Shown here: piece by piece, positions 6,301-51,216 of the stretch | Position numbering within the stretch: position 1 is the stretch's first letter | How the letters are laid out: every line of letters starts with the position of its first letter | Source of the DNA: Amycolatopsis solani | GTDB taxonomy: Bacteria; Actinomycetota; Actinomycetes; Mycobacteriales; Pseudonocardiaceae | Direction: 5' to 3' | DNA length: 64,000 nt | Assembly: GCF_033441515.1 (NCBI RefSeq) | Contig: NZ_JAWQJT010000002.1 | Span: forward strand, 1,364,001 to 1,428,000 | Notes under the pieces: model-generated | What the model was told of the DNA's origin: nothing | The model's database searches: none | The model's input: only the letters and a program-made list of their open reading frames with translations | Program-made: the position numbers and the translations under genes

Positions 6301-7165
6301 CCTCGATGGCGGCGTCGGTGCCGTTGAAGGCGGCGCCGTGAGGGCCGACGACGCCGTCGCCCCAGGTGGTGCCGCCGGTCAGGGTCGCGGTGCGGGCGTC
6401 GAGGGAGTCGTCGGCCGCGGTGGTGCCGGTGCCCTCGTCGAGGGTCCAGTGCCCTGCGATGGCCAGGCGTGCGGCATCGGCGCCGGTCAGGGCGCTGGAG
6501 TAGGCGCGGACGTCGTCGATCGTGCCGTCGACGTAGTCCACCGGGTTGCCGCCGTACTTACCGCGGCCGATCACCAGGTGGCCGGTGCCGGCCCAGCCCG
6601 CGGGCGCGGCCACCGTCGCCTGGTGGGTGCCGTCCACGTACAACGACAGCGTCGACGCGGCCGCGTCGAACACGCCGGTGAGCTGGTACCACTGGCCCAC
6701 GACGGGGTCGAAGTTCGCCGAGGCGACAACACCGTCGGACGGCGCGTCCCCGGCGAGGCGGGTGAAGGCGAACCGGCGCGAGTCGTCGCGGAACTGGAGG
6801 AAGAAATTGCTGACCTGGTTTCCGTCGACGCTGACGAACGTCTGGAAGCCGGACGTCTTGTCGAGCTTGACCCAACTGCTGACGGAGAAGCTCTTGGTGG
6901 TGTCGAGCACGGGCGCGCCGGCGTCGGCGAAGCCACTGGCTCCGTCCGTCGTCAGGGCGCCACCCCGGATGCCGGGACCCCAGCCCGCGCCCGAGTTGAG
7001 GGTCGCGGGGTGATCCCCGGCGCTGTCGGCGGCGGTGGTGCCGCTGCCTTCGTCGAACGTCCAGTGCCCGGCCAGCGCCGAGGCCTGCTCCGCCACGCTG
7101 GCCGGAGCGGGCAGGGCGGAGAACAAGGTCACGGCCGCGAGCACGGCCAGGATGCGGGTCTTCAT
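3365..7165 (-). CDS. Secreted GH51 alpha-L-arabinofuranosidase with three LamG-like domains
   Basis: A 1266-aa exported enzyme expected to release L-arabinofuranose from arabinan or arabinogalactan. It has a signal peptide (MKTRILAVLAAVTLFSALPAPASVA), three LamG/concanavalin-like repeats (about residues 30-610, each opening with a GHW/GSW-F/L-DEGTGT motif), then a GH51 region beginning near LAVDANVVRANTRPTTYGSILEDISHS with a CBM4/9-like insert. VEVGNEDWFDGSG carries the likely acid/base Glu and ILVGEYG the likely nucleophile. ATG at 7165 overlaps the permease stop (ATGA), tying the enzyme to the importer. Being inside the arabinose operon supports the substrate. Three LamG modules on a GH51 is a large architecture. 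Confidence 0.93.
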   Translation of the reverse strand: MKTRILAVLAAVTLFSALPAPASVAEQASALAGHWTFDEGSGTTAADSAGDHPATLNSGAGWGPGIRGGALTTDGASGFADAGAPVLDTTKSFSVSSWVKLDKTSGFQTFVSVDGNQVSNFFLQFRDDSRRFAFTRLAGDAPSDGVVASANFDPVVGQWYQLTGVFDAAASTLSLYVDGTHQATVAAPAGWAGTGHLVIGRGKYGGNPVDYVDGTIDDVRAYSSALTGADAARLAIAGHWTLDEGTGTTAADDSLDARTATLTGGTTWGDGVVGPHGAAFNGTDAAIEAPAPVVDTAQSFSVSAWVKPTAATGFRTAVSIDGSTISGFYLQRAADGRFAFTRRAADGDSASSSAVSTLPAQADQWQHVVGVYNRAAGTLSLYVNGTLQQSVPFTTPWTAGGHLVIGRGKWAGGPVDWFAGGVDDVRAYPTPLTASAVAALAASGSWHFDEGTGTVTRDASANGADGVLKGATWTAGAAGKAVQLDGKSTVDLGASPAFDTGTGSLSLAAWFRTTADGTLVDHGDGYALGIAAGKLTARVGTIQVTTTGGGLADGNWHHAAVVLDRASQRLTVYADGDAATVTSTCGTPTGTTLDVSACPASGTAAAPLTVGAGFTGTIDELELRRFPLTAAQIGTLAGANQLAVDANVVRANTRPTTYGSILEDISHSVEGGLYAELVRNRTFKEAYQGGSGAGDTPVPYWSLLASAGATGTYAIDTATPLNTALDRSLKVHADVVPAGGRVAAANVGYYGVAAKPATKYTGSFFAKGTWTGAVRVSLEKPDGTVLASKDVQPVGADWAQQTFSFTTPSTITTSTDNRIVVSLVNKGKQALAGDAWFQQVSLFPPTFKNHGVRLDLGQKLAAMKLGLFRVPGGNFLEGNTLDTRFAWKDTIGKPEERPGHQNSAWGYWSTDGFGILDYLKLSEDIGAQPLLALFAGYTLNGQHVSQADYPQYVQEALDEIEYAIGDASTTWGAKRIADGHPAPFDLHYVEVGNEDWFDGSGSYAWRFTDMFNAIKAKYPQLTVIATTGGLQGGAASSTSTGVRPDAADDHYYQSPQWFTDNSTRYDTADRSGPDILVGEYGAQDGRPTGTLAAAIGEAAFLTGLERNSDVVIGSMYAPVLVQENQSNWPVNLIGFDAGSSYGSPSYWVQQMFSSTLGKQIVTSRLNQGSPLRQVVNVTTKGGRKTFTVKLVNPTGQVQTTRLSLTGVTAVDGTGTLTTLTGDPAGRNSLAAPAAIVPQTRELTGLAATSKLTLPANSVTTLVITGR

Positions 7166-8148
7166 CGACCACTCCCCCGGGTCACAAGACGTTGCAGGAC
7201 GATGAAGACGAACAGCAGGGCGCCGGTGATGATCGACGTCCACCAGGAGTTGAGGGTGCCGTCGAAGGTGATCAGCGTCTGGATGATGCCCAGCACCATG
7301 ATCCCGAGCACGGTGCCCAGCACGTAGCCGGAGCCGCCGGTGAGGATGGTGCCGCCGATGACCACCGCGGCGATCGCGGTCAGCTCGAGGCCGACGCCGT
7401 TGAGCGGGTCGCCGGAAGACTTGTACAGCACGAGAAGCAGCCCGCCGAGGGCCGAGCAGAAGCCGCTGATCGTGTACACCGCGATCTTCGTGCGGCCGGT
7501 CTTGAGGCCCATCAGCATCGCGGACTGCGCGTTGCCGCCGATCGAGTAGACCGTGCGCCCGAACCGCGTGAAAGCCAGCACGTACACCGCGATCGCGACG
7601 ACGACCAGTGCGGCGACCACGCTGATCGAGATGTGCAGTTCCCCGCCGAGCGGGATCTGCGTCTGGGCGAGCGTGGCGATCGTCGCGTTGTCGATCGAGT
7701 ACGCCTCGGTGCTGATCGTGTAGCAGAGCCCGCGGGCGAAGAACATCCCGATCAGGGTCGCGATGAACGGCTGGATCTCGAAGAAGTGGATGAGCGCGCC
7801 CATCCCGGCGCCGAGCAGCGCCCCGACCACCAGCACCACGGCGATGGCCGCGTAGGCGGACCAGCCGTGCTTCTGCATCAGGTCGCCCGAGATCACTGTG
7901 GACAGTGCGACGACCGAGCCGACGGAGAGGTCGATGCCGCCGGTGAGTATCACGAACGTCATCCCGACCGCGACGACCAGGAGGAAGGCGTTGTTGATGA
8001 ACAGGTCGAGGATGACCTGCCCGGAGCCGAACGCGTCGTAGCTGGCCGCGCCGAAGATGTACGCCCCGATGAGCAGTGCCATCGTGGCGAGGATCGGGAG
8101 GTGTCGTTGCCGGGGCCGGTAACCGCGAACGCGGTCCAGGGTGGTCAT
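7162..8148 (-). CDS. Sugar ABC transporter permease, YjfF-like
   Basis: Membrane permease of 328 aa in the BPD_transp_2 (ribose/galactofuranose) class. It shows about eight or more hydrophobic segments and the hallmark GMTFVILTGGIDLSVGSVVALS segment. It is the second of two permeases, coupled to the first at 8145-8148 by ATGA and to the GH51 gene downstream. With the YtfQ-like binding protein it probably imports a furanose sugar, here most likely L-arabinofuranose. Confidence 0.93.
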   Translation of the reverse strand: MTTLDRVRGYRPRQRHLPILATMALLIGAYIFGAASYDAFGSGQVILDLFINNAFLLVVAVGMTFVILTGGIDLSVGSVVALSTVISGDLMQKHGWSAYAAIAVVLVVGALLGAGMGALIHFFEIQPFIATLIGMFFARGLCYTISTEAYSIDNATIATLAQTQIPLGGELHISISVVAALVVVAIAVYVLAFTRFGRTVYSIGGNAQSAMLMGLKTGRTKIAVYTISGFCSALGGLLLVLYKSSGDPLNGVGLELTAIAAVVIGGTILTGGSGYVLGTVLGIMVLGIIQTLITFDGTLNSWWTSIITGALLFVFIVLQRLVTRGSGR

Positions 8149-43719: not shown

Positions 43720-45147
43720 ATGTCCCGCACCCAAGGACGGCATCGCATTTCCCGCCGGACCAAGATCGCGACCGGCGGCCTCGCCCTCGCGATCGCGGTC
43801 GGCGGCATCGTCGTCGCGACGACCACCGGCAACACCGGAGAAGCCAGCGCCGACGAGGCCGATCCCGCCTTCTACATCGACATCCTGAAGGTGCAGCCGA
43901 ACCAGTTCGACCCGAGACCCGTCTACGGCGCCGCGACCGGCACGTTCACCGTCGACTGCGGCCGCAACGAAAACCAGCACTTCAACCCCGACAACTTCAT
44001 CGCGCAGCCCGGCGTCCGCAACGGCGCGCAGCACCTGCACGACTACGTCGGCAACCTCTCCACCAACGCCGACTCCACGAACAAGAGCCTCGCGAAGGCC
44101 GGCACCACCTGCCGCAACGGCGACAAGTCCGCCTACTTCTGGCCCGTCGTCCGGATCGACACCGGCGAAGAGGAGAAGAACGAGCCCGCCAAGGCGCCGG
44201 ACGGCGACCGGGCTCAGGCCGCTCAGGAGGCGAAGACCGTCCAGGTGGCCTGCCCGGACGTCGCGAGCAAGCTGCCGGACATCCCCGACCAGGCGATGGC
44301 CGAAGTGGACAGCAACCTCGACCAGCTCGACACCCAGACCGACGAGGCGAACCAGCGCGTCGCCGCGGCGCAGGGCCAGGGCGGCCAGAACCTGGTCCAG
44401 AACAGCATCGTCGGCCCGCTCAACGACCGGCGGCGGGCGATCATCGAGCGGATCCTCACCGCGATCGGCCGGTTCGCGCCGAAGCCGGGCGGCATCGGCG
44501 CCCAGCCGTGCACCACGAAGCCCGGCAAGGACACCGGATCGCCGACGCCGCCGCCGAGCAGCACCGCGGGCGGCGCGCTGCCGGGCCAGGACGGCAACAA
44601 CGAGCTGCCCGGCAACGACGGCAAGATCCTGCGGCCGCAGAAGGTCCAGCTGACGTTCCGCGGCAGCCCGGTGGGCAAGGTCGTGGCGATGCCGAAGTTC
44701 CTGCGCGTGCTCTACGGCGACGCGAAGGTCTCGACCAACGGCCCGGCCAACGCGCGCGCCAGCTGGACGTGCACCGGGTTCGAGAACCGCGTCACCGAGA
44801 AGTACCCGATCTGCCCGCAGAACAGCAAGGTCAAGCGCGTGCACACGTTCCCGAGCTGCTGGGACGGGCAGAACACCGACAGCGCCAACCACCGCACGCA
44901 CATCGTCTTCCCGGACCAGAACGGCCGGTGCGCCAAGGGGTTCAAGGCGGTCCCGCAGCTGCAGATCTCCCTGACCTACGACATCCCGCACGACATCCAG
45001 GTCAAGAAGCAGTACAAAGTGGACGCATTCCCCCAGGAGAAGCACAACCCGTTCTCCGACCACGACGACTTCGCGAACGTGATGTCGCAGCGGATCATGA
45101 ACGGGCTGGTCAACTGCGTGAACCGCGGGCGGACCTGCCGGGCGTGA
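43720..45147 (+). CDS. Secreted DUF1996 protein
   Basis: A 475-aa exported protein with an N-terminal hydrophobic segment after a basic start. Two blocks of the DUF1996 family are visible: NGAQHLHDYVGNLSTNADSTN with GDKSAYFWPVVRID, and SCWDGQNTDSANHRTHIVFPD with the DHDDF end motif. Between them (about residues 145-300) is a charged and Pro/Gly-rich insert. DUF1996 proteins are found in fungi and actinomycetes; their function is not established as far as I know. Strong terminator follows. Confidence 0.9.
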   Translation: MSRTQGRHRISRRTKIATGGLALAIAVGGIVVATTTGNTGEASADEADPAFYIDILKVQPNQFDPRPVYGAATGTFTVDCGRNENQHFNPDNFIAQPGVRNGAQHLHDYVGNLSTNADSTNKSLAKAGTTCRNGDKSAYFWPVVRIDTGEEEKNEPAKAPDGDRAQAAQEAKTVQVACPDVASKLPDIPDQAMAEVDSNLDQLDTQTDEANQRVAAAQGQGGQNLVQNSIVGPLNDRRRAIIERILTAIGRFAPKPGGIGAQPCTTKPGKDTGSPTPPPSSTAGGALPGQDGNNELPGNDGKILRPQKVQLTFRGSPVGKVVAMPKFLRVLYGDAKVSTNGPANARASWTCTGFENRVTEKYPICPQNSKVKRVHTFPSCWDGQNTDSANHRTHIVFPDQNGRCAKGFKAVPQLQISLTYDIPHDIQVKKQYKVDAFPQEKHNPFSDHDDFANVMSQRIMNGLVNCVNRGRTCRA

Positions 45148-45161
45148 CGTAGCGAGACCCG

Positions 45162-45201
45162 CGAAGGCCCCCACCGGCGACCGAGCCGGTGGGGGCCTTC
45201 G
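45162..45201 (+). terminator. Terminator after DUF1996 gene
   Basis: Perfect 17-base arms (45162-45178 and 45185-45201, CGAAGGCCCCCACCGGC) around a six-base loop. It insulates the RiPP-like locus downstream. There is little T-run, as is common in actinomycetes. Confidence 0.85.
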
Positions 45202-45356
45202 TCGTGCGCCGGTCACCCCGGGACCGTGACGAACGCATGCCCGGGTCCGTGCGGATCGCAGTCCAGAAGACGTCAGAACGCACGGCGCCGCCCGAAACTG
45301 GTTCCCGTCACCCCGCCCCGGTGGCCCCACCGGGGGACAGCCACACAGGAGGAACC

Positions 45357-45491
45357 ATGATCTCGACCTTCGAGCGCCCCTCGGCCGTCGTCGTCCACAA
45401 CCGCGCGGTCGTGCACAACCGGGCCGTCGTCCACAACCGCGCCGTGGTCCACAACCGCGCCGTCGTGCACAACCGCGCGTCCGCCAAGTAG
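45357..45491 (+). CDS. Repetitive RiPP precursor peptide, five HNR repeats
   Basis: A 44-aa peptide: a nine-residue start MISTFERPS, then AVV and five hexapeptide units VHNRAV (last VHNRAS), ending AK. An optimal AGGAGG lies five bases before the ATG. The repeats have no Cys, Ser or Thr except a Ser after the last Arg. The 18-base DNA units differ at synonymous positions (GTC/GTG, CGC/CGG), consistent with selection on the peptide. It is 73 bases upstream of a YcaO gene, which makes a modular RiPP precursor the best reading; thiovarsolin's VarA with repeated APR cores is the nearest known analogy. I know of no described family with HNR repeats. Confidence 0.82.
   Translation: MISTFERPSAVVVHNRAVVHNRAVVHNRAVVHNRAVVHNRASAK
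45393..45482 (+). repeat. Five 18-bp in-frame tandem repeats in the precursor gene
   Basis: Units of the form GTCGTCCACAACCGCGCC, five in a row, each encoding V-H-N-R-A-V in phase (last unit A-S). Variation is confined to third positions. Confidence 0.9.
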
Positions 45492-45509
45492 TCCCGGCCC
45501 AGCCGTAGA

Positions 45510-45541
45510 CGTGCCGCGGCCCCGCTCCGGGCCGCGGCACG
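45510..45541 (+). promoter_or_regulatory. Strong hairpin between precursor and YcaO genes
   Basis: A 13-base perfect stem (45510-45522, CGTGCCGCGGCCC, pairing with 45529-45541) with a six-base loop and no T-run. A hairpin in this place could stabilise or attenuate the transcript so that more precursor than enzyme is made, as is seen in many peptide natural product operons. Confidence 0.7.
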
Positions 45542-45564
45542 GCCCCGCCGACGAGGGGAACGCC

Positions 45565-47739
45565 ATGCCTTCCGACGACATCCGCCTGCAGCTGACCGGG
45601 GTCGAGCTCCACGACCTCGAACCGGAGCTGTGCCTGCTCATCACCCCGAACGGCGGCCAGTACTCGATCACCGCGCCGGTGGGCGGGTTCCGCGCCTGGC
45701 TCGGCCGCTGCGACGGCACCCGGACCCGGGCCGAACTGCTCGACGGGATGAGCCCGGACCACGCGGAAGTGCTCGACGTCCTCGAAGCGGACGGCTGCCT
45801 GCACCCGGCCACCGGCGACGACGGCGCCGAGCGCCTCGCCGCGACCACGGTGCTGGTCACCGGCGCGCCCGAGCTGACCGGTCCGCTGACGGCGGCCCTC
45901 GGCGCGAGCGGCTACGGCGCCGTCCACGCGCTCGCCGGCACCGACATCCCCGTGACACCGGCGGACACCGTCCTCGTCGCGGCCTACACCCACCCCGCCC
46001 ACCGGGAGCTCTCCGCGCTGGACGCGTTGTGCACCGGACACGGCGTGCGCTTCTTCCCGTTCCGCGTCGAACGCGGCCAGGGCATCGCCGGGCCCGCGAT
46101 CGAGCCGGACATCGGCCCCGACTTCGCGGACGTGCTGGCGCGGCGCCGCTCGGCCGCCCTCGACCCCCGCGTCCCCGACGCCTTCGCCGCCGCCGTCGCC
46201 CCGCCCGGCCCGCGGTTCCGGCCGGGCGCCGCCCGCTGGCTGGCCGCCGCCGTCGCCGTCCAGGTCGAACGCTGGATCGCCGGCGAGCCCGCCGAGACGG
46301 CGACCGGCGAGCTGGAGCTCGATCCCGTCCGGCTGACCGCGCTCCCCCGGCCCGTGCTGCCCGTGCCCGACCGGCCCCGGCCGGTGCGCGAGCGGGGCTT
46401 GCGGCCGGACCTGCTCGTCGACGACCGGACCGGCATCGTGACCGCGGTCCACGAACTGCCCGCCGCGCCGGGGATGCCCGCCCGGCTGAAGGTGTGCGCG
46501 GTGGACGTCGCGGACATGCGGCGGGTCGTCGACTGGCCGAACGACCGCCAGGCGTTCGGCACGTCGTGGCACGACTTCGAGCTCGCCCGCGAGTCCGCGA
46601 TCGGCGAGGCGGTCGAACGCTACTGCGGCAGCTGGCTGCCCCCGGACCGCGAAGTCCGCCACGGCAGCTACGAACGGCTGCGCCGCGACGGCGTCCCGGC
46701 CCTCGACCCGCGGCGGCTCAACCTCTATTCGGCCCGGCAGTACGCGACCCCGGGGTTCCCCTTCGCGCCGCTGACCACCGACGTGGAATGCGCGTGGGTG
46801 GAAGCCTTTTCGCACACGACGAAGGAGCCGGTCTGGGTGCCGGCGAGCCTCGTCTCCCAGGCACCCGAACCCACCGGGGCGCGGTTCACCGACCCGCTGA
46901 TCGCCGGGCTGGCCGGCGGCACCAGCGCGGAGCACGCCGTCACCTCCGGTCTCGAAGAGGTGCTGGAGCGCGACACCACCATGGTGTGGTGGGCCAACAC
47001 GCCACGGTTGCGCGCCCTGCCGGTGCCGCCCGAGGTCCGCGCGCTCATCGCCGACACCACCGAAACCTACGACGTGACGCTGATCCCGCTGGACAACGAG
47101 TTCGCCGTCCCGGTCGTCGCGGCCGCGGTGTTCGACCGCGCGCGGCGCTGGCTGTCGATCGGCTTCGCCACCCGGCCCGACGCGCTGGAAGCGGCGAAGA
47201 AGGCGCTCGCCGAAGGGTTCACGCTGCAGCACACCTGCCTGGCCCTCGACGACGAGCGCGAGCTGGCGGCGATGCGCGACGACCTGCCGCACCTGGGCAA
47301 CCTCAAGCCGTACCGGGCCGACCGGCGCTACCTCGACTCCTACCGCGCGGACTTCGGCGACGTCGTGGACCTGCTGTGCCAGCAGCAGGTCTACCTCGAC
47401 CCGCGCGCGGCGGCGCACGTCGCCCCGTGGGTGCGCGACCTCCCGGAGCGGAGCTGGGAAGGACTGCCCGCGCTCGGCGAGCGGACGCTCAAGAGCTACC
47501 AGGAGCGCGTCGAAGCCCGCGGGTTCGAGGTGCTCAGCGTCGACCTCACCACCCGTGACGTCGCCGCCGCCGGGTTCCACGCCGCGCACACGCTGGTGCC
47601 GGGGCTGGTGGCCAACTTCCCGGCCGGGCTGCCGTACTGGGGCGACGGCCGCGTGCGCCGCGCGGCGGTCGACCTCGGCTGGCGCGCGCACCCACTGCCC
47701 GAGGAGCGGCTGAACACCTTCCCGCTCCCCCACGCCTGA
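45565..47739 (+). CDS. YcaO-domain RiPP maturase with N-terminal RRE and degenerate E1-like region
   Basis: A 724-aa ATP-dependent peptide-modifying enzyme. Residues 1-85 look like a wHTH/RRE leader-binding region. Residues 90-210 resemble the ocin-ThiF/E1-like domain of TOMM cyclodehydratases, but where zinc-binding Cys are usual the sequence is GPAIEPDIGPDFADVLARRR with none. Residues 280-724 are YcaO: SAIGEAVERYC (344-354) and GLEEVLERD (462-470) are the ATP/Mg motifs, and the C-terminus is TFPLPHA, a PxP-type end. Its substrate is presumably the peptide at 45357. Because the repeats lack Cys/Ser/Thr, azoline formation there is not possible; thioamide, amidine or other backbone chemistry is more likely. 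No TfuA partner is present. Confidence 0.87.
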   Translation: MPSDDIRLQLTGVELHDLEPELCLLITPNGGQYSITAPVGGFRAWLGRCDGTRTRAELLDGMSPDHAEVLDVLEADGCLHPATGDDGAERLAATTVLVTGAPELTGPLTAALGASGYGAVHALAGTDIPVTPADTVLVAAYTHPAHRELSALDALCTGHGVRFFPFRVERGQGIAGPAIEPDIGPDFADVLARRRSAALDPRVPDAFAAAVAPPGPRFRPGAARWLAAAVAVQVERWIAGEPAETATGELELDPVRLTALPRPVLPVPDRPRPVRERGLRPDLLVDDRTGIVTAVHELPAAPGMPARLKVCAVDVADMRRVVDWPNDRQAFGTSWHDFELARESAIGEAVERYCGSWLPPDREVRHGSYERLRRDGVPALDPRRLNLYSARQYATPGFPFAPLTTDVECAWVEAFSHTTKEPVWVPASLVSQAPEPTGARFTDPLIAGLAGGTSAEHAVTSGLEEVLERDTTMVWWANTPRLRALPVPPEVRALIADTTETYDVTLIPLDNEFAVPVVAAAVFDRARRWLSIGFATRPDALEAAKKALAEGFTLQHTCLALDDERELAAMRDDLPHLGNLKPYRADRRYLDSYRADFGDVVDLLCQQQVYLDPRAAAHVAPWVRDLPERSWEGLPALGERTLKSYQERVEARGFEVLSVDLTTRDVAAAGFHAAHTLVPGLVANFPAGLPYWGDGRVRRAAVDLGWRAHPLPEERLNTFPLPHA

Positions 47740-47749
47740 GGACGCACCG

Positions 47750-48970
47750 ATGGCCGTCACCGCACTGCTCGGTCTGCCCCGCACCCGGGGCCGCCTCCCG
47801 CTGGTCGCCGCCCAGGGCGTGGACGCGCTGGGCACCGGGCTGTTCCTGCCCTTCGCCGTCGTCTACTTCCACGCCGCCAAGGGCCTGCCGCTGACCGCGG
47901 TCGGCGCGGCGCTTTCGCTGGCGGCGCTGCTCGCCCTGCCCGCCGGGCTCTGCGCGGGCCCGCTGGTGGACCGCTTCGGGCCGCGGCGAGTGGTCGTCGC
48001 GGCCAACCTGCTGCGGGTGCTCACGTTCACCGGGTACGTCTTCGCCGGCTCGCCGGCGGTGCTGGTCGTGCTGGCGGCGCTGACGTTCTGGGGTGAAGGC
48101 CTGTTCTGGCCCGCCTCGGGTGCGCTGGTGGCGCAGGTGGCCGACGACGGGCAGCGCGCCCGCTGGTACGCGATGGAGCGCACCCTGCGCAACGTCGGCA
48201 TCGGCCTCGGCGGGCTCGCCGGCGGGGTGCTGGTCGTGGCCGGCGGCTACACCGCGATCGTCGTGCTCAACGCCGTGAGCTTCTTCGCCGCGGCGGCACT
48301 CGTCGCGCTGTGGCGGGGCCAGGCGGCCGAAGCACCTCCTCGCGCCGCCACGGCTCGCGGGAGTTACCGGCCCGTGCTCGCCGACCGCGCGTTCCGCCGG
48401 GTGCTGGTGACCGTCTTCGTCTTCGCGTTGTGCGACCTGGCGCTGACGGTGCTGCTCAGCGCGTACGTGCTCGACGCGCTGCGGTTGCCGGCGTGGCAGC
48501 CCGGCGTGCTCTTCGCCCTCAACACGGTGCTGGTGGTGCTCGCGCAGACGGTCGTCGCCGCGCGCGTCGACCGGTTCCGCCGGGCGCGGACGCTGCAGGG
48601 CGCGGCCGTGGTGTGGGCCGCGGCGTTCCTGCTCTACGCGGCCGTGCCGCTGGCCACCGCGCTGCCCGCGTTCGCCGTGCTGGCCGTGGCGACCGCGGTC
48701 TTCACCGCGGCGGAACTGCTGCAGGCGCCGACCAGCAGCGCGCTGACCGTCGCGCTGGCCCCCGCCCACCTGCGCGGCCGCTACCTCGGGCTGGAGGAAC
48801 TGCTCTGGGGCGCGGCGCGGGTGCTGGCCCCGGTGACCTTCACCGCGTTGCTGGCGGGCGGCCCGCAGCTGCCGTGGCTGGTGCTCGCCGGGTGCTGCAT
48901 GCTGGCGGTGGTCGTCCTCGCCGGACTGAAAGCGGAACCGGCCCCAGCGCGGGAGAACGTGCATGCCTGA
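47750..48970 (+). CDS. MFS exporter of the RiPP-like locus
   Basis: A 406-aa major facilitator with about 12 helices. Loop 2-3 reads GPLVDRFGPRRVVV and the family's helix 4-5 region is FWPASGALVAQVADDGQRARWYAMERTLRNVGIGLGG. It starts 10 bases after the YcaO stop and overlaps the acetyltransferase by eight bases, so it is part of the same operon. It most likely exports the mature product. Confidence 0.9.
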   Translation: MAVTALLGLPRTRGRLPLVAAQGVDALGTGLFLPFAVVYFHAAKGLPLTAVGAALSLAALLALPAGLCAGPLVDRFGPRRVVVAANLLRVLTFTGYVFAGSPAVLVVLAALTFWGEGLFWPASGALVAQVADDGQRARWYAMERTLRNVGIGLGGLAGGVLVVAGGYTAIVVLNAVSFFAAAALVALWRGQAAEAPPRAATARGSYRPVLADRAFRRVLVTVFVFALCDLALTVLLSAYVLDALRLPAWQPGVLFALNTVLVVLAQTVVAARVDRFRRARTLQGAAVVWAAAFLLYAAVPLATALPAFAVLAVATAVFTAAELLQAPTSSALTVALAPAHLRGRYLGLEELLWGAARVLAPVTFTALLAGGPQLPWLVLAGCCMLAVVVLAGLKAEPAPARENVHA

Positions 48971-49433
48971 TTTGGCCCAGCTCGCCGAGCTCTACCACGA
49001 GGTGTACCGCGAGCCGCCCTACCGGGAAACCGAAGCGGACGCGGCCCGGTTCCGCGAAACGCTGATGGCGCACGCGAAACAGCCCGGTTTCGCGCTGGAG
49101 ACCGTCCACAGTGGAGGCGAGCTCGCCGGGTTCGCCTACGGCGTCGGCCGCGAGGCGGGCTGGTGGCCGGCCCCGGCGGCGGCCGGGCCGCCGTCGTGGC
49201 TCGCCGGCCGCCCGCTGTTCTACGTCTACGAGCTCGCCGTACGGCCGGACCACCGCGGGCGCGGGCACGGCCGGGACCTGCTCGAGCGCCTGCTGGGCGA
49301 GCGGACCGAGCCGGCCGCGGTGCTCGCCGCCTCGACCGACGCCCCGGCGCACGCGCTCTACCACCGCTGGGGCTGGACGACGGTGGCGCCGGTCAGGTCG
49401 AGTGCCGTGGAACTGCTGGCTCGGCGGCTCTGA
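48963..49433 (+). CDS. GNAT-family N-acetyltransferase
   Basis: A 156-aa acetyltransferase. The acetyl-CoA-binding segment is YELAVRPDHRGRGHGRDLLERLL, with R-G-x-G-x-G/A type loop, and the C-terminal ALYHRWGW is typical of the fold. In the operon with YcaO and the exporter it may cap a free amine of the mature peptide (N-terminus after cleavage) or give self-protection. Its 3' end overlaps the convergent MFS gene by 41 bases. Confidence 0.88.
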   Translation: MPDLAQLAELYHEVYREPPYRETEADAARFRETLMAHAKQPGFALETVHSGGELAGFAYGVGREAGWWPAPAAAGPPSWLAGRPLFYVYELAVRPDHRGRGHGRDLLERLLGERTEPAAVLAASTDAPAHALYHRWGWTTVAPVRSSAVELLARRL

Positions 49434-50616
49434 GCGCGTCCTCGGTCACCACGAACAGCCCGCCCACCACCGAGAACGCCAGCACGGCCATCACGACGAA
49501 CACCGCGTGCAGCCCGAACGCCTGCGCGAGCGCGCCGCCGGCCAGCGCGCCGAGCGACTTCGTGCCCCAGGCCACCAGCCGGTGGCTGCTGGTCAGACGG
49601 CCGAGCAGGCGGTCCGGCGTGATCCGCTGGCGCAGCGACACCATCACGACGTTCGACACCAGGATGCCGGCGCCCCCGGCGAAGAACGCGGCTCCCACCG
49701 CGTACGGGTTCGCGGTGACCGCGAGGACGCTGACGGTCAGCCCGCCGGCGAGCCACGACACCCAGAGCGCGCGGACGCGGCCGAGCCGGCGTTCCACCGT
49801 TTCGGCCAGCAGCGAGCCGACGAGACCGCCGGCCGCGGTCGTCGCCGTCAGAAGCCCGAAAGCCGGGCCGGACAGCCCCATCGCCGAGCCGGGGCCGACC
49901 GCGTACAAGACCAGCACCGCGAACGTGGCTCCGGTGGCGAAGTTGAACGTGCCGACCATCAGGGAGAAGGTCCGCAGGATCTTGTGGTGCGCGAGGAACC
50001 GCAGTCCTTCGGCGATGTCCGCGCGGAGGGTGGCGGGGGCGTCCCCGCGCGGGATCCGGTACGCGCCGCGCACCAGCAGCAGCGCCGCGACGGCCACCGC
50101 CCACAGCGCCACCGGCGTGGCGAGCGCGGCCAGCACCCCGGCGGCGACCAGGACTCCGGCCAGCGGCGGCCCGGCGAACTCGTTGGCGGTCTGCTCGACC
50201 GCGTACACCCGGCCGTTGGCGCGGGCGAGCTCGTCCCGGCCGACGACCTGCGGGACGATCGACTGCGCGGCCGTGTCGTAGAGCGTCTCGGCGGTCCCGA
50301 CGCCGAGCGCGACGACGTACAGCGCCCAGATCGATCCCCCGCCGGCCGCGGTCAGCAGCGCGACGACGGCGACCAGCCCGCCACGCAGGACGTTCGCGGC
50401 GAGCATCGTCCGGCGGCGGTCGAGCCGGTCGACGAGCGCGCCGGCGGGCAGCGCGAACAGCAGCCACGGGACGCTGAAGGCGAACGCGAGCCCCGCGACC
50501 AGCGCCGGCGACCGGGTGTAGCCGACCGCGAGCAGCGGCAGGGCGACCTTGAGGACGCCGTCGGCGAGGCTCGACAGCCCCGCCGCGGTCCACAGCCGCC
50601 AGAAGGTCCGGTCCAT
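49393..50616 (-). CDS. MFS exporter regulated by the adjacent ArsR-type protein
   Basis: A 407-aa transporter with about 12 helices and the drug-efflux style start MDRTFWRLWTAAGLSSLADGVLKVALPLLA and loop LVDRLDRRRTMLAANVLRGG. It resembles MFS_3-type exporters. It diverges from the regulator at 50692 across three CATCGATG boxes. It may supply resistance or a second export route for the neighbouring peptide product, but it is on the opposite strand and could be independent. Confidence 0.9.
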   Translation of the reverse strand: MDRTFWRLWTAAGLSSLADGVLKVALPLLAVGYTRSPALVAGLAFAFSVPWLLFALPAGALVDRLDRRRTMLAANVLRGGLVAVVALLTAAGGGSIWALYVVALGVGTAETLYDTAAQSIVPQVVGRDELARANGRVYAVEQTANEFAGPPLAGVLVAAGVLAALATPVALWAVAVAALLLVRGAYRIPRGDAPATLRADIAEGLRFLAHHKILRTFSLMVGTFNFATGATFAVLVLYAVGPGSAMGLSGPAFGLLTATTAAGGLVGSLLAETVERRLGRVRALWVSWLAGGLTVSVLAVTANPYAVGAAFFAGGAGILVSNVVMVSLRQRITPDRLLGRLTSSHRLVAWGTKSLGALAGGALAQAFGLHAVFVVMAVLAFSVVGGLFVVTEDALRAAEPAVPRHST

Positions 50617-50631
50617 GAATGGAGGATCGCA

Positions 50632-50676
50632 CATCGATGGGGTTTTCTCCATCGATGTGACGGATCCCCATCGATG
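50632..50676. promoter_or_regulatory. Three CATCGATG operator boxes
   Basis: CATCGATG occurs at 50632-50639, 50650-50657 and 50669-50676, spaced 18 and 19 bases start to start. The first two also form a larger dyad, ACATCGATGG...CCATCGATGT. This is an excellent candidate operator array for the regulator at 50692 in the divergent promoter. Confidence 0.78.
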
Positions 50677-50691
50677 GCTTACGCTGCGTCC

Positions 50692-51216
50692 ATGAACGAG
50701 CCCCGCCGCCGCCGGCCGGCGACCCCGGCGGAAGCGAAGGCCCTCGGCCACCCGCTGCGGCTGCGCATCATGCGGCTGTGCCTGGTCGACGAGCTGACCA
50801 ACAAGCAGCTGGCCGACCGCCTCGACCGCGATCCCGGCACGGTCCTGCACCACGTCCGGCAGCTGGTGGCCGCCGGGCTCCTGGAGCCGGCCCCGGTCCG
50901 CACCGGCCCGAGCGGCGCGCTGGAGAAGCCCTACCGCGCCGACAACGAGACGTGGTGGCTCGACGGTCCCCTGGCGAGCGCCGACGCCGAGACGCGGTTC
51001 GCGCCCATCGAGATCTTCCAGGAGGAGCTCGCGGCGGCGGGCCCGGATTCGGTCGCCGTGTACGAGAAGTTCCTGCTGCACCTGTCCCCCGACGAGGTCG
51101 AGGAGCTCGACCGCCGGATCCTGGCGGTGCTCGACGAGTACGTGGCGACCGACCACGAGCGGCGCGACCGGCCCGCGGTCGGCGGGATCTTCGTGCTGCA
51201 CCACCTCGAGCCCTGA
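50692..51216 (+). CDS. ArsR-like winged-helix regulator
   Basis: A 174-aa regulator. AKALGHPLRLRIMRLCLVDELTNKQLADRLDRDPGTVLHHVRQLVAAGLLEP is a typical ArsR/HTH_20 domain; the C-terminal half is acidic and helical, without metal-binding Cys. There is no ribosome site before the ATG at 50692, and a TACGCT -10-like element about 8 bases upstream suggests a leaderless transcript. It probably represses the divergent MFS gene and itself. Confidence 0.9.
   Translation: MNEPRRRRPATPAEAKALGHPLRLRIMRLCLVDELTNKQLADRLDRDPGTVLHHVRQLVAAGLLEPAPVRTGPSGALEKPYRADNETWWLDGPLASADAETRFAPIEIFQEELAAAGPDSVAVYEKFLLHLSPDEVEELDRRILAVLDEYVATDHERRDRPAVGGIFVLHHLEP

What the first reader, a model, noticed from the sequence alone, without database searches (positions are those of the whole stretch)
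45357..49433. Candidate new RiPP class: HNR-repeat precursor with a stand-alone YcaO, exporter and acetyltransferase
Seen: a 44-aa peptide of five VHNRAV units, a 724-aa RRE/E1-like/YcaO protein, an MFS exporter and a GNAT enzyme, co-directional, tightly spaced and insulated by a terminator at 45162. Known: YcaO proteins modify peptide backbones, forming azolines at Cys/Ser/Thr, or thioamides or amidines. Inference: with no Cys/Ser/Thr in the repeats, this YcaO must act on other positions, perhaps giving several short products per precursor as in thiovarsolins. No TfuA, dehydrogenase or protease is present. I know of no described class with this core.
Basis: partly seen in the sequence, partly recalled or inferred. 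Interest (0 to 1): 0.92.

Follow-up and report, generated by a model that had tools for sequence, protein, structure and literature searches.

The report
HNR-repeat peptide with YcaO enzyme
Some soil bacteria carry a four-gene cassette in which a tiny protein, made of the same six amino acids repeated four to six times, sits beside an enzyme of a kind that re-shapes peptide backbones, although the repeats lack the residues such enzymes normally use; several relatives have lost the peptide yet kept a version of the enzyme whose energy-binding site is altered.

Summary
Window 45357-45491 encodes a 44-aa peptide with five VVHNRA units, followed by a fused RRE/E1-like/YcaO protein (724 aa), an MFS protein and a GNAT, co-directional. 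The YcaO is not stand-alone: its domain order is that of cyanobactin heterocyclases (TruD, LynD). The 95 repeat units counted in 20 loci spell VVHNR in 15 ways. The own genome has no TfuA hit.

Two further points. (1) More distant fused relatives sit beside single-core peptides with an Asn/His-rich triad (NNN, HHH, HNH, NHH, HDH) in 10 of 14 loci examined, so HNR may be the repeated form of a wider Asn/His substrate. (2) In nine same-genus genomes peptide, MFS and GNAT are all gone but a YcaO frame stays open (at least four losses). In three of these lineages substitutions concentrate on the conserved ATP/Mg-site residues, while pairwise dN/dS stays near 0.3.

Best reading: a multi-core RiPP, dehydrated at or near HNR, cut, N-acetylated and exported. 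The chemistry is inferred, not shown. I found no printed description in the library searched.

The parts
45357..45491 (+). Precursor peptide, 44 aa: short leader MISTFERPSAV, five VVHNRA units, tail SAK
   Evidence: conserved in 19 intact loci plus one decaying one, 4-6 units in the intact ones
45390..45479 (+). Repeat region: five VVHNRA hexapeptide units (residues 12-41)
   Evidence: sequence; (95 units in 20 loci, 15 distinct 15-mers for VVHNR)
45565..47739 (+). Fused RRE (about aa 7-81) / E1-like (about aa 84-273) / YcaO (about aa 280-724) protein, C-terminus FPLPHA
47750..48970 (+). MFS protein, probable exporter, 406 aa, 10 nt after the YcaO stop
   Evidence: MFS_1 128.7 bits; present in 19 of 19 intact loci
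48963..49433 (+). GNAT acetyltransferase, 156 aa, overlaps the MFS end by 8 nt
   Evidence: Acetyltransf_1 38.8 bits; present in 19 of 19 intact loci
45249..45274 (+). Conserved block upstream of the precursor (gtgcggatcgca..ccagaagacgtc), candidate promoter or operator
   Evidence: Alignment of 19 upstream regions: clear in the 15 Amycolatopsis rows, weak in the 4 Streptomyces rows; coordinates
45162..45201 (+). Strong GC hairpin between the DUF1996 gene and the cassette; no T-run
   Evidence: -48.3 kcal/mol for 45150-45215, z -6.3; not called as terminator

Best explanation
This is a compact multi-core RiPP cassette. The short leader (MISTFERP) docks on the N-terminal RRE of the fused E1-like/YcaO enzyme. 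The enzyme activates backbone amides with ATP in successive VVHNRA units. Because the units hold no Cys, Ser or Thr, the attacking group is most likely a nitrogen of the HNR triad (Asn or His side chain closing a six-membered ring on the preceding carbonyl), giving loss of one water per unit. General cellular peptidases (no protease gene is conserved in the cassette) then free short peptides, the GNAT acetylates the new amino terminus, and the MFS protein exports them. Shown: the conserved four-gene unit, the coding conservation of the units, the predicted RRE/E1/YcaO fold with its ATP-site residues intact in loci that keep the peptide, and the joint absence of peptide, MFS and GNAT in orphan loci. 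Inferred: the reaction, the reacting residue, the cleavage, the acetylation target, the direction of transport and the biological role.
Against: No product, mass or expression data. Ser/Thr occur in leader and tail (MIST....SAK..RSVAK), so an ordinary azoline there is possible. Four of the 14 sister loci lack the N/H pattern (L121-L123; L060 has GHHTT, and the pattern's match in L060 is a different, chance frame); many sister cores also hold Ser or Thr. The protein search with the peptide found one hit only, a likely chimera. The GNAT and MFS could serve immunity or something else. In 3 of 4 Streptomyces loci a DUF885 gene follows the GNAT, so the cassette may be larger there. The single-sequence fold of the peptide is one helix, of little weight.
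Confidence: 0.6

Rival explanations
1. Amidine formation: after leader or unit cleavage the free amine of a unit attacks a nearby backbone carbonyl, as in streptamidine, bottromycin or klebsazolicin.
For: [quoted passage not shown] AmiD also has a Pro-rich C-terminus, as here.
Against: It needs cleavage first, and no hydrolase or protease is conserved in this cassette. The Fec, hydrolase and dehydrogenase genes of the main ami subset are not among the four genes. Five internal units would need five cleavages.
Confidence: 0.2
2. Thioamidation of each unit, thiovarsolin-like, with sulfur delivered by a protein encoded elsewhere.
For: Thiovarsolin has a repeating precursor, an MFS gene, no specific protease, and N-acetyl-APR products with a thioamide between Pro and Arg. 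A YcaO-TfuA pair can thioamidate Asn (PMC13174530, abstract and passages).
Against: TfuA (PF07812): 0 hits in the own genome and 4 of 19 cassette genomes, none at the cassette. A fused RRE/E1 plus Pro-rich tail is the cyclodehydratase pattern.
Confidence: 0.07
3. The YcaO cuts the repeat itself (ATP-dependent peptidase, as the title of the MusD entry 7u58 states), so that short peptides, otherwise unmodified, are the product.
For: MusD is among the best structural and profile matches. No protease gene is in the cassette.
Against: TruD and LynD match as well or better. The residues that make MusD a peptidase were not compared.
Confidence: 0.1
4. The HNR peptide is not a RiPP substrate but a small structural peptide (for example a hexapeptide-repeat fold).
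For: Weak Pfam hit to Hexapep (18.1 bits, cut-off 27; 14.9 bits for the Streptomyces peptide).
Against: Below cut-off; strict linkage to an RRE/YcaO protein; predicted helix, not beta-helix (single sequence).
Confidence: 0.03
5. For the orphan YcaO genes (a separate question): they are simply decaying, and the ATP site goes first because activity without its substrate is costly (disarming), not because the altered protein has a job.
For: In L014-L016 no ATG/GTG/TTG follows the RBS-like stretch at the deletion junction; L014 and L015 have in-frame starts only further upstream, and L016 has a stop there. Tree branches of several orphans are longer and omega is on the high side. L079, L014, L015, L016, L010 have further in-frame losses.
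Against: Frames stay open in 9 of 9 orphan loci. Omega is 0.35 (0.26-0.45) for L037/L079 and 0.26-0.34 for five pairs of lineage C, well under 1, though pairs with L041 may include time before the site was altered. Most other conserved sites are spared.
Confidence: 0.45

Closest known systems
Thiovarsolins (YcaO-TfuA, repeating precursor VarA)
   Same: Repeated short core, MFS gene, no dedicated protease, Arg in the core; N-acetylated products there (PMC6511847 passages)
   Different: No TfuA, heme oxygenase-like, ATP-grasp or amidinotransferase gene in the cassette; YcaO fused to RRE and E1-like domains; dedicated GNAT; different core
Streptamidine family (ami clusters)
   Same: Actinobacterial YcaO with precursors poor in Ser/Thr/Cys; His in the core (PMC8442711, parts 1-3 of 5)
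   Different: AmiB and AmiD are separate proteins; Fec-type transporters, hydrolase and dehydrogenase needed; precursor motifs A/B sharing ALV, not HNR repeats
Cyanobactin heterocyclases TruD, LynD, MusD
   Same: Domain order RRE, E1-like, YcaO, Pro-rich C-terminus; best profile and fold matches
   Different: About 20% identity; they act on Cys/Ser/Thr (recalled), which the HNR units lack; no macrocyclase here
Mobilisins (predicted, PMC4603692 section 21)
   Same: Actinobacterial fused cyclodehydratase with a nearby short peptide poor in Cys/Ser/Thr
   Different: Mobilisin clusters have a B (dehydrogenase) protein, absent here; sequences lie in supplements not held, so relation to the HNR or N/H-triad group is untested
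Single-core N/H-triad peptides beside 35-43% identical fused YcaOs (found here, unnamed)
   Same: Same enzyme architecture, N/H-rich triad, often a similar short leader, MFS next to some
   Different: One core with an FxW-like end, no repeats
Stand-alone YcaOs with NTCVAA / NCVPA repeat peptides (one in the own genome)
   Same: Repeated core next to a related YcaO, MFS near some
   Different: No RRE/E1 fusion, Cys in each unit (ordinary thiazoline possible)

Membership tests
RiPP biosynthetic cassette (general) | Short precursor gene conserved beside a modifying enzyme with a leader-binding RRE | tested here: met
   19 of 19 intact loci; RRE-like fold at 7-81 by prediction, in the stretch aligned with LynD and MccB; leader binding itself not tested
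RiPP biosynthetic cassette (general) | Precursor is modified and product isolated | not testable with these tools
   No chemistry available
Fused azoline-forming cyclodehydratase (TruD/LynD type) | RRE + E1-like + YcaO in one chain, ATP-site residues, Pro-rich C-terminus | tested here: met
   signature residues intact in the 19 loci with the peptide
Fused azoline-forming cyclodehydratase (TruD/LynD type) | Cys, Ser or Thr in the core | tested here: not met
   None in any VVHNRA unit; Ser/Thr only in leader and tail
Thiovarsolin / thioamidated RiPPs | YcaO paired with TfuA | tested here: not met
   No TfuA at the locus; own genome 0 hits; 4 of 19 cassette genomes have one elsewhere
Thiovarsolin / thioamidated RiPPs | Repeated short core with MFS and no protease | tested here: met
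   compared with PMC6511847 passages
Streptamidine family | Precursor with motif A or B, separate AmiB/AmiD, Fec genes, hydrolase (major subset) | tested here: not met
   By eye against PMC8442711 text and gene content; the motif logos lie in figures/supplement, not held
Amidine-forming YcaO | Amidine ring in product | not testable with these tools
   Needs MS/NMR
Mobilisin | B, C and D proteins with the mobilisin peptide | tested here: inconclusive

The most novel reading that the evidence does not exclude
A family of fused RRE/E1/YcaO enzymes uses Asn or His side-chain nitrogen instead of Cys/Ser/Thr as the nucleophile and so writes six-membered (dihydropyrimidinone- or imidazo-pyrimidine-like) rings into N/H-triad peptides, with HNR repeats as the multi-copy form. 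In Amycolatopsis the enzyme has also been turned, several times independently, into an ATP-dead but fold-conserved protein once peptide, exporter and GNAT were lost, perhaps kept as an immunity or binding protein.
Probability: 0.27. Interest if true: 0.92.

Novelty: new variant of a known kind. Interest (0 to 1): 0.72.

Why it matters
If YcaO enzymes can close rings with Asn or His, searches that look for Cys/Ser/Thr in the core miss a family seen here in Amycolatopsis, Streptomyces and other genomes of the phylum (one survey says that peptides poor in these residues escaped its automatic identification), and a new backbone heterocycle becomes accessible from a two-gene system. The substrate is small and its five units are identical, so one mass spectrum would settle the chemistry. 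The orphan enzymes, with altered ATP sites but conserved folds, are a natural experiment on what a RiPP synthetase does when it no longer makes a RiPP.

Tried and rejected
Streptamidine membership: rejected on gene content and text. TfuA-dependent thioamidation: unlikely. PADLOC: no hits for YcaO, MFS, GNAT. Precursor encoded elsewhere in orphan genomes: none found in the nine (E <= 0.01). DUF885 as the missing protease: present in 3 of 4 Streptomyces loci, absent from the other loci held; HExxH not found in the L068 copy. Pfam Hexapep on the peptide: below cut-off. NCBIfam on ten related short peptides: no family over cut-off; one weak hit (CefA, 15 bits against 30) for the NTCVAA peptide. 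P0001, the one protein hit of the peptide search, looks like a chimera of sense and antisense reading (by eye). The first invariant-residue list was circular, because the alignment behind it (A2) held two rows that proved to be orphans (P0011, P0012); redone without P0011, P0012 and P0014, and with 39 distant rows only. P0045, left in the reference, later proved to have an altered site itself. The seven 'signature' sites were chosen after seeing which sites changed and are named ATP/Mg ligands partly from recall (they align with TruD/LynD), so the Fisher values are descriptive. Searches saw the 120 listed of 189 proteins found. The paper search by peptide string listed 20 of 48 papers, all run-together ordinary words; the other 28 were not seen. 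The VIA comparison is a ranked, capped list; an unlisted family is not excluded. No Rfam search was made.

Full report

Conservation of the cassette. A scan of named genomes gave six loci, all with the repeat peptide upstream: five Amycolatopsis and Streptomyces sp. H27-S2. In all 80 same-genus genomes held, 26 have the YcaO at E <= 1e-100. The genus is Amycolatopsis by inference: G035 shares a contig length with the A. rifamycinica record of L004. The peptide was sought separately in the same 80: 17 matched, one of which (G033, LVHWRA) is an unrelated repeat, leaving 16. These are 15 intact loci and one decaying locus (G018, L011: three units, leader start lost, MFS reduced to a remnant). Of the other ten, nine keep the YcaO without the peptide and one (G469) has only a 43% relative. 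In the genus of G082 (Streptomyces by inference: L048 from it is 99.6% identical to a protein listed for S. scabiei) 10 of 392 genomes match at 1e-100, three of them with the cassette. A phylum sample gave 3 of 396 at 1e-60 and the family 17 of 297, own genome included in both. In the 19 distinct intact loci MFS and GNAT are both present, 19 of 19; in one an IS110-like ORF (named by eye) separates them. In 20 loci there are 95 VVHNR units with 15 different 15-mers; the counter takes perfect units only, but the printed peptides contain no imperfect one. Unit number is 5 in 14 Amycolatopsis loci, 6 in one, 4 in all four Streptomyces loci, 3 in the decaying one. A block gtgcggatcgca..agacgtc about 83-108 nt before the start codon is conserved in the 15 Amycolatopsis rows and weak in the 4 Streptomyces rows.

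Relatives point to Asn/His. Beside more distant fused YcaOs (35-43% by BLAST) I looked for precursors in 14 loci. Ten have a short peptide with an N/H-rich triad shortly before an FxW-like end: NNN (L058, L059, L061, L073, L074), HHH (L062), HNH (L063), NHH (L057, L118), HDH (L119); L058 and L059 hold the same peptide. Four do not (L121-L123; L060 has GHHTT). The same pattern hits once in 468,020 strand-bases of control sequence; it was written after seeing the peptides. Several leaders (MIVHID, MIEKIE, MIARID, MLEIFE) resemble MISTFE. A third group, stand-alone YcaOs, sits beside repeats with Cys (VNTCVAASL, APNTCVAAF, NNCVAAYVDADEF, NCVPA), one copy lying in the own genome (L071). Asn or His recurs in these cores; the HNR and NNN triads have no Cys, Ser or Thr, although several sister cores hold Ser or Thr nearby. 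This is why I prefer an Asn/His nitrogen as the nucleophile: attack of the Asn side-chain nitrogen or the His ring nitrogen on the preceding carbonyl would close a six-membered ring, the analogue of azoline formation. That is inference from chemistry, not a result.

Orphan enzymes. Nine same-genus genomes (G026, G013, G029, G490, G030, G014, G002, G471, G458) keep an open YcaO frame but have no tblastn hit of peptide, cassette MFS or GNAT within the 15-kb stretches held, and no peptide elsewhere. Scars are visible: in G026 the RBS remains and the coding part is gone, and in G013 a fragment remains. A tree of 29 rows needs at least four changes for the orphan label on starred branches. With 75 non-orphan reference rows, 69 sites are at least 97% conserved. 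Orphans of three lineages changed 15 of them, among them all seven of E348, E351, E465, E468, R469, K546, E550; per lineage 3, 7 and 7 of these seven against 2, 3 and 7 of the 62 other sites. I chose these seven after seeing the pattern, and name them ATP/Mg ligands from recall and from their alignment with TruD/LynD, so the p-values describe and do not prove. With sites defined from 39 distant rows only (57 sites), the 36 nearer reference rows show no change at the seven except P0045; six rows have one other change. L012 and L011 have no such change, and L041 only K546R. Among 53 close database relatives 18 have a changed signature (some by one conservative step, context unknown for most), among 67 more distant ones 1; these are the 120 listed of 189 found. 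Omega is 0.35 (0.26-0.45) for L037/L079 and 0.26-0.34 for five lineage C pairs, against 0.15-0.30 in ten chosen intact pairs; all 45 pairs of the nine orphans and L011 span 0.19-0.41. The ranges overlap: constraint is at most relaxed, not absent. Against a live function: in L014-L016 no ATG/GTG/TTG follows the RBS-like stretch at the junction, L014 and L015 have in-frame starts only further upstream, and L016 has a stop there; several orphans have further in-frame losses. So either a dead YcaO is kept for a binding or immunity role, or activity without substrate is selected against and the rest is decaying slowly. I cannot decide between them.

How it probably works. RRE-guided, ATP-dependent dehydration at HNR in every unit; release of short peptides by general peptidases; N-acetylation by the GNAT; export by the MFS. 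The nearest logic is thiovarsolin: repeated core, MFS, no specific protease, N-acetylated tripeptides (PMC6511847, passages); but there the change is a thioamide by YcaO-TfuA, and TfuA is absent here (own genome 0; 4 of 19 cassette genomes, the Streptomyces sp. H27-S2 genome not searched, have one elsewhere). Streptamidine (PMC8442711, parts 1-3 of 5 read) shares a substrate family without the usual residues but not genes or motifs. An amidine by a freed amine is the chief rival.

Is it in print? Searches of the held open library found no paper on this repeat or cassette: strings VHNRA, VVHNR, HNRAV, NTCVAA, HNRAVV (48 papers, 20 listed, those being unrelated words), HNR with YcaO and precursor (0), YcaO with Amycolatopsis and precursor peptide (10 listed), YcaO since 2022 (40 of 145 listed), and (8 of 9 listed; 20 of 247; 25 of 114). 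In passages of the TOMM landscape, RRE-Finder and RRE 2025 papers I saw no such class, and Amycolatopsis occurs in none of the three main texts. But the TOMM landscape paper describes the predicted mobilisins: actinobacterial fused cyclodehydratases, mainly Mobiluncus and Rhodococcus, with a nearby short peptide poor in Cys, Ser and Thr (section 21). They have a dehydrogenase, which this cassette lacks, and their sequences are in supplements not held, so a relation to the N/H-triad group is open. Subscription papers and supplements are not covered.

Noticed in passing
L071 (G000:C1:3880000-3894000), upstream of the YcaO hit at 6346-7611 of the oriented locus: A second YcaO system in the own genome: stand-alone YcaO beside a peptide with VVNTCVAASL repeats, an MFS-like gene upstream; related repeats in L076, L087, L066, L064, L065.
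   Followed up: partly
L058, L059, L061, L062, L063, L057, L118, L119, L073, L074: Unnamed single-core peptides with Asn/His-rich triads and an FxW-like end beside fused RRE/E1/YcaO proteins; no NCBIfam model matched the members tested.
   Followed up: partly
L077-L085: Orphan YcaO genes without peptide, cassette MFS or GNAT, several with changed ATP-site residues; five (L080-L082, L084, L085) lack the RRE and three of these (L080-L082) lack a clear start codon.
   Followed up: yes
L005, L068, L069: A DUF885 gene (PF05960) follows the GNAT in three of four Streptomyces loci.
   Followed up: partly
L086, L075, L072: Two related stand-alone YcaO genes in tandem (starts about 1.35-1.4 kb apart); no clear repeat peptide directly beside them.
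   Followed up: no
window 43720-45147: DUF1996 protein gene directly upstream, syntenic in one Amycolatopsis clade only; in the other clade the locus lies near a gene that reads like rlmN (by eye), so the cassette occupies two chromosomal sites.
   Followed up: partly
window 49358-51216: A second, opposite-strand MFS gene and a divergent ORF that reads like an ArsR-type regulator (by eye) follow the cassette.
   Followed up: no
L009 and L036: The YcaO open frame is longer (818 and 836 aa from stop to stop) with an in-frame insertion or duplication (in L009 around residues 92-139); the locus is otherwise intact.
   Followed up: no
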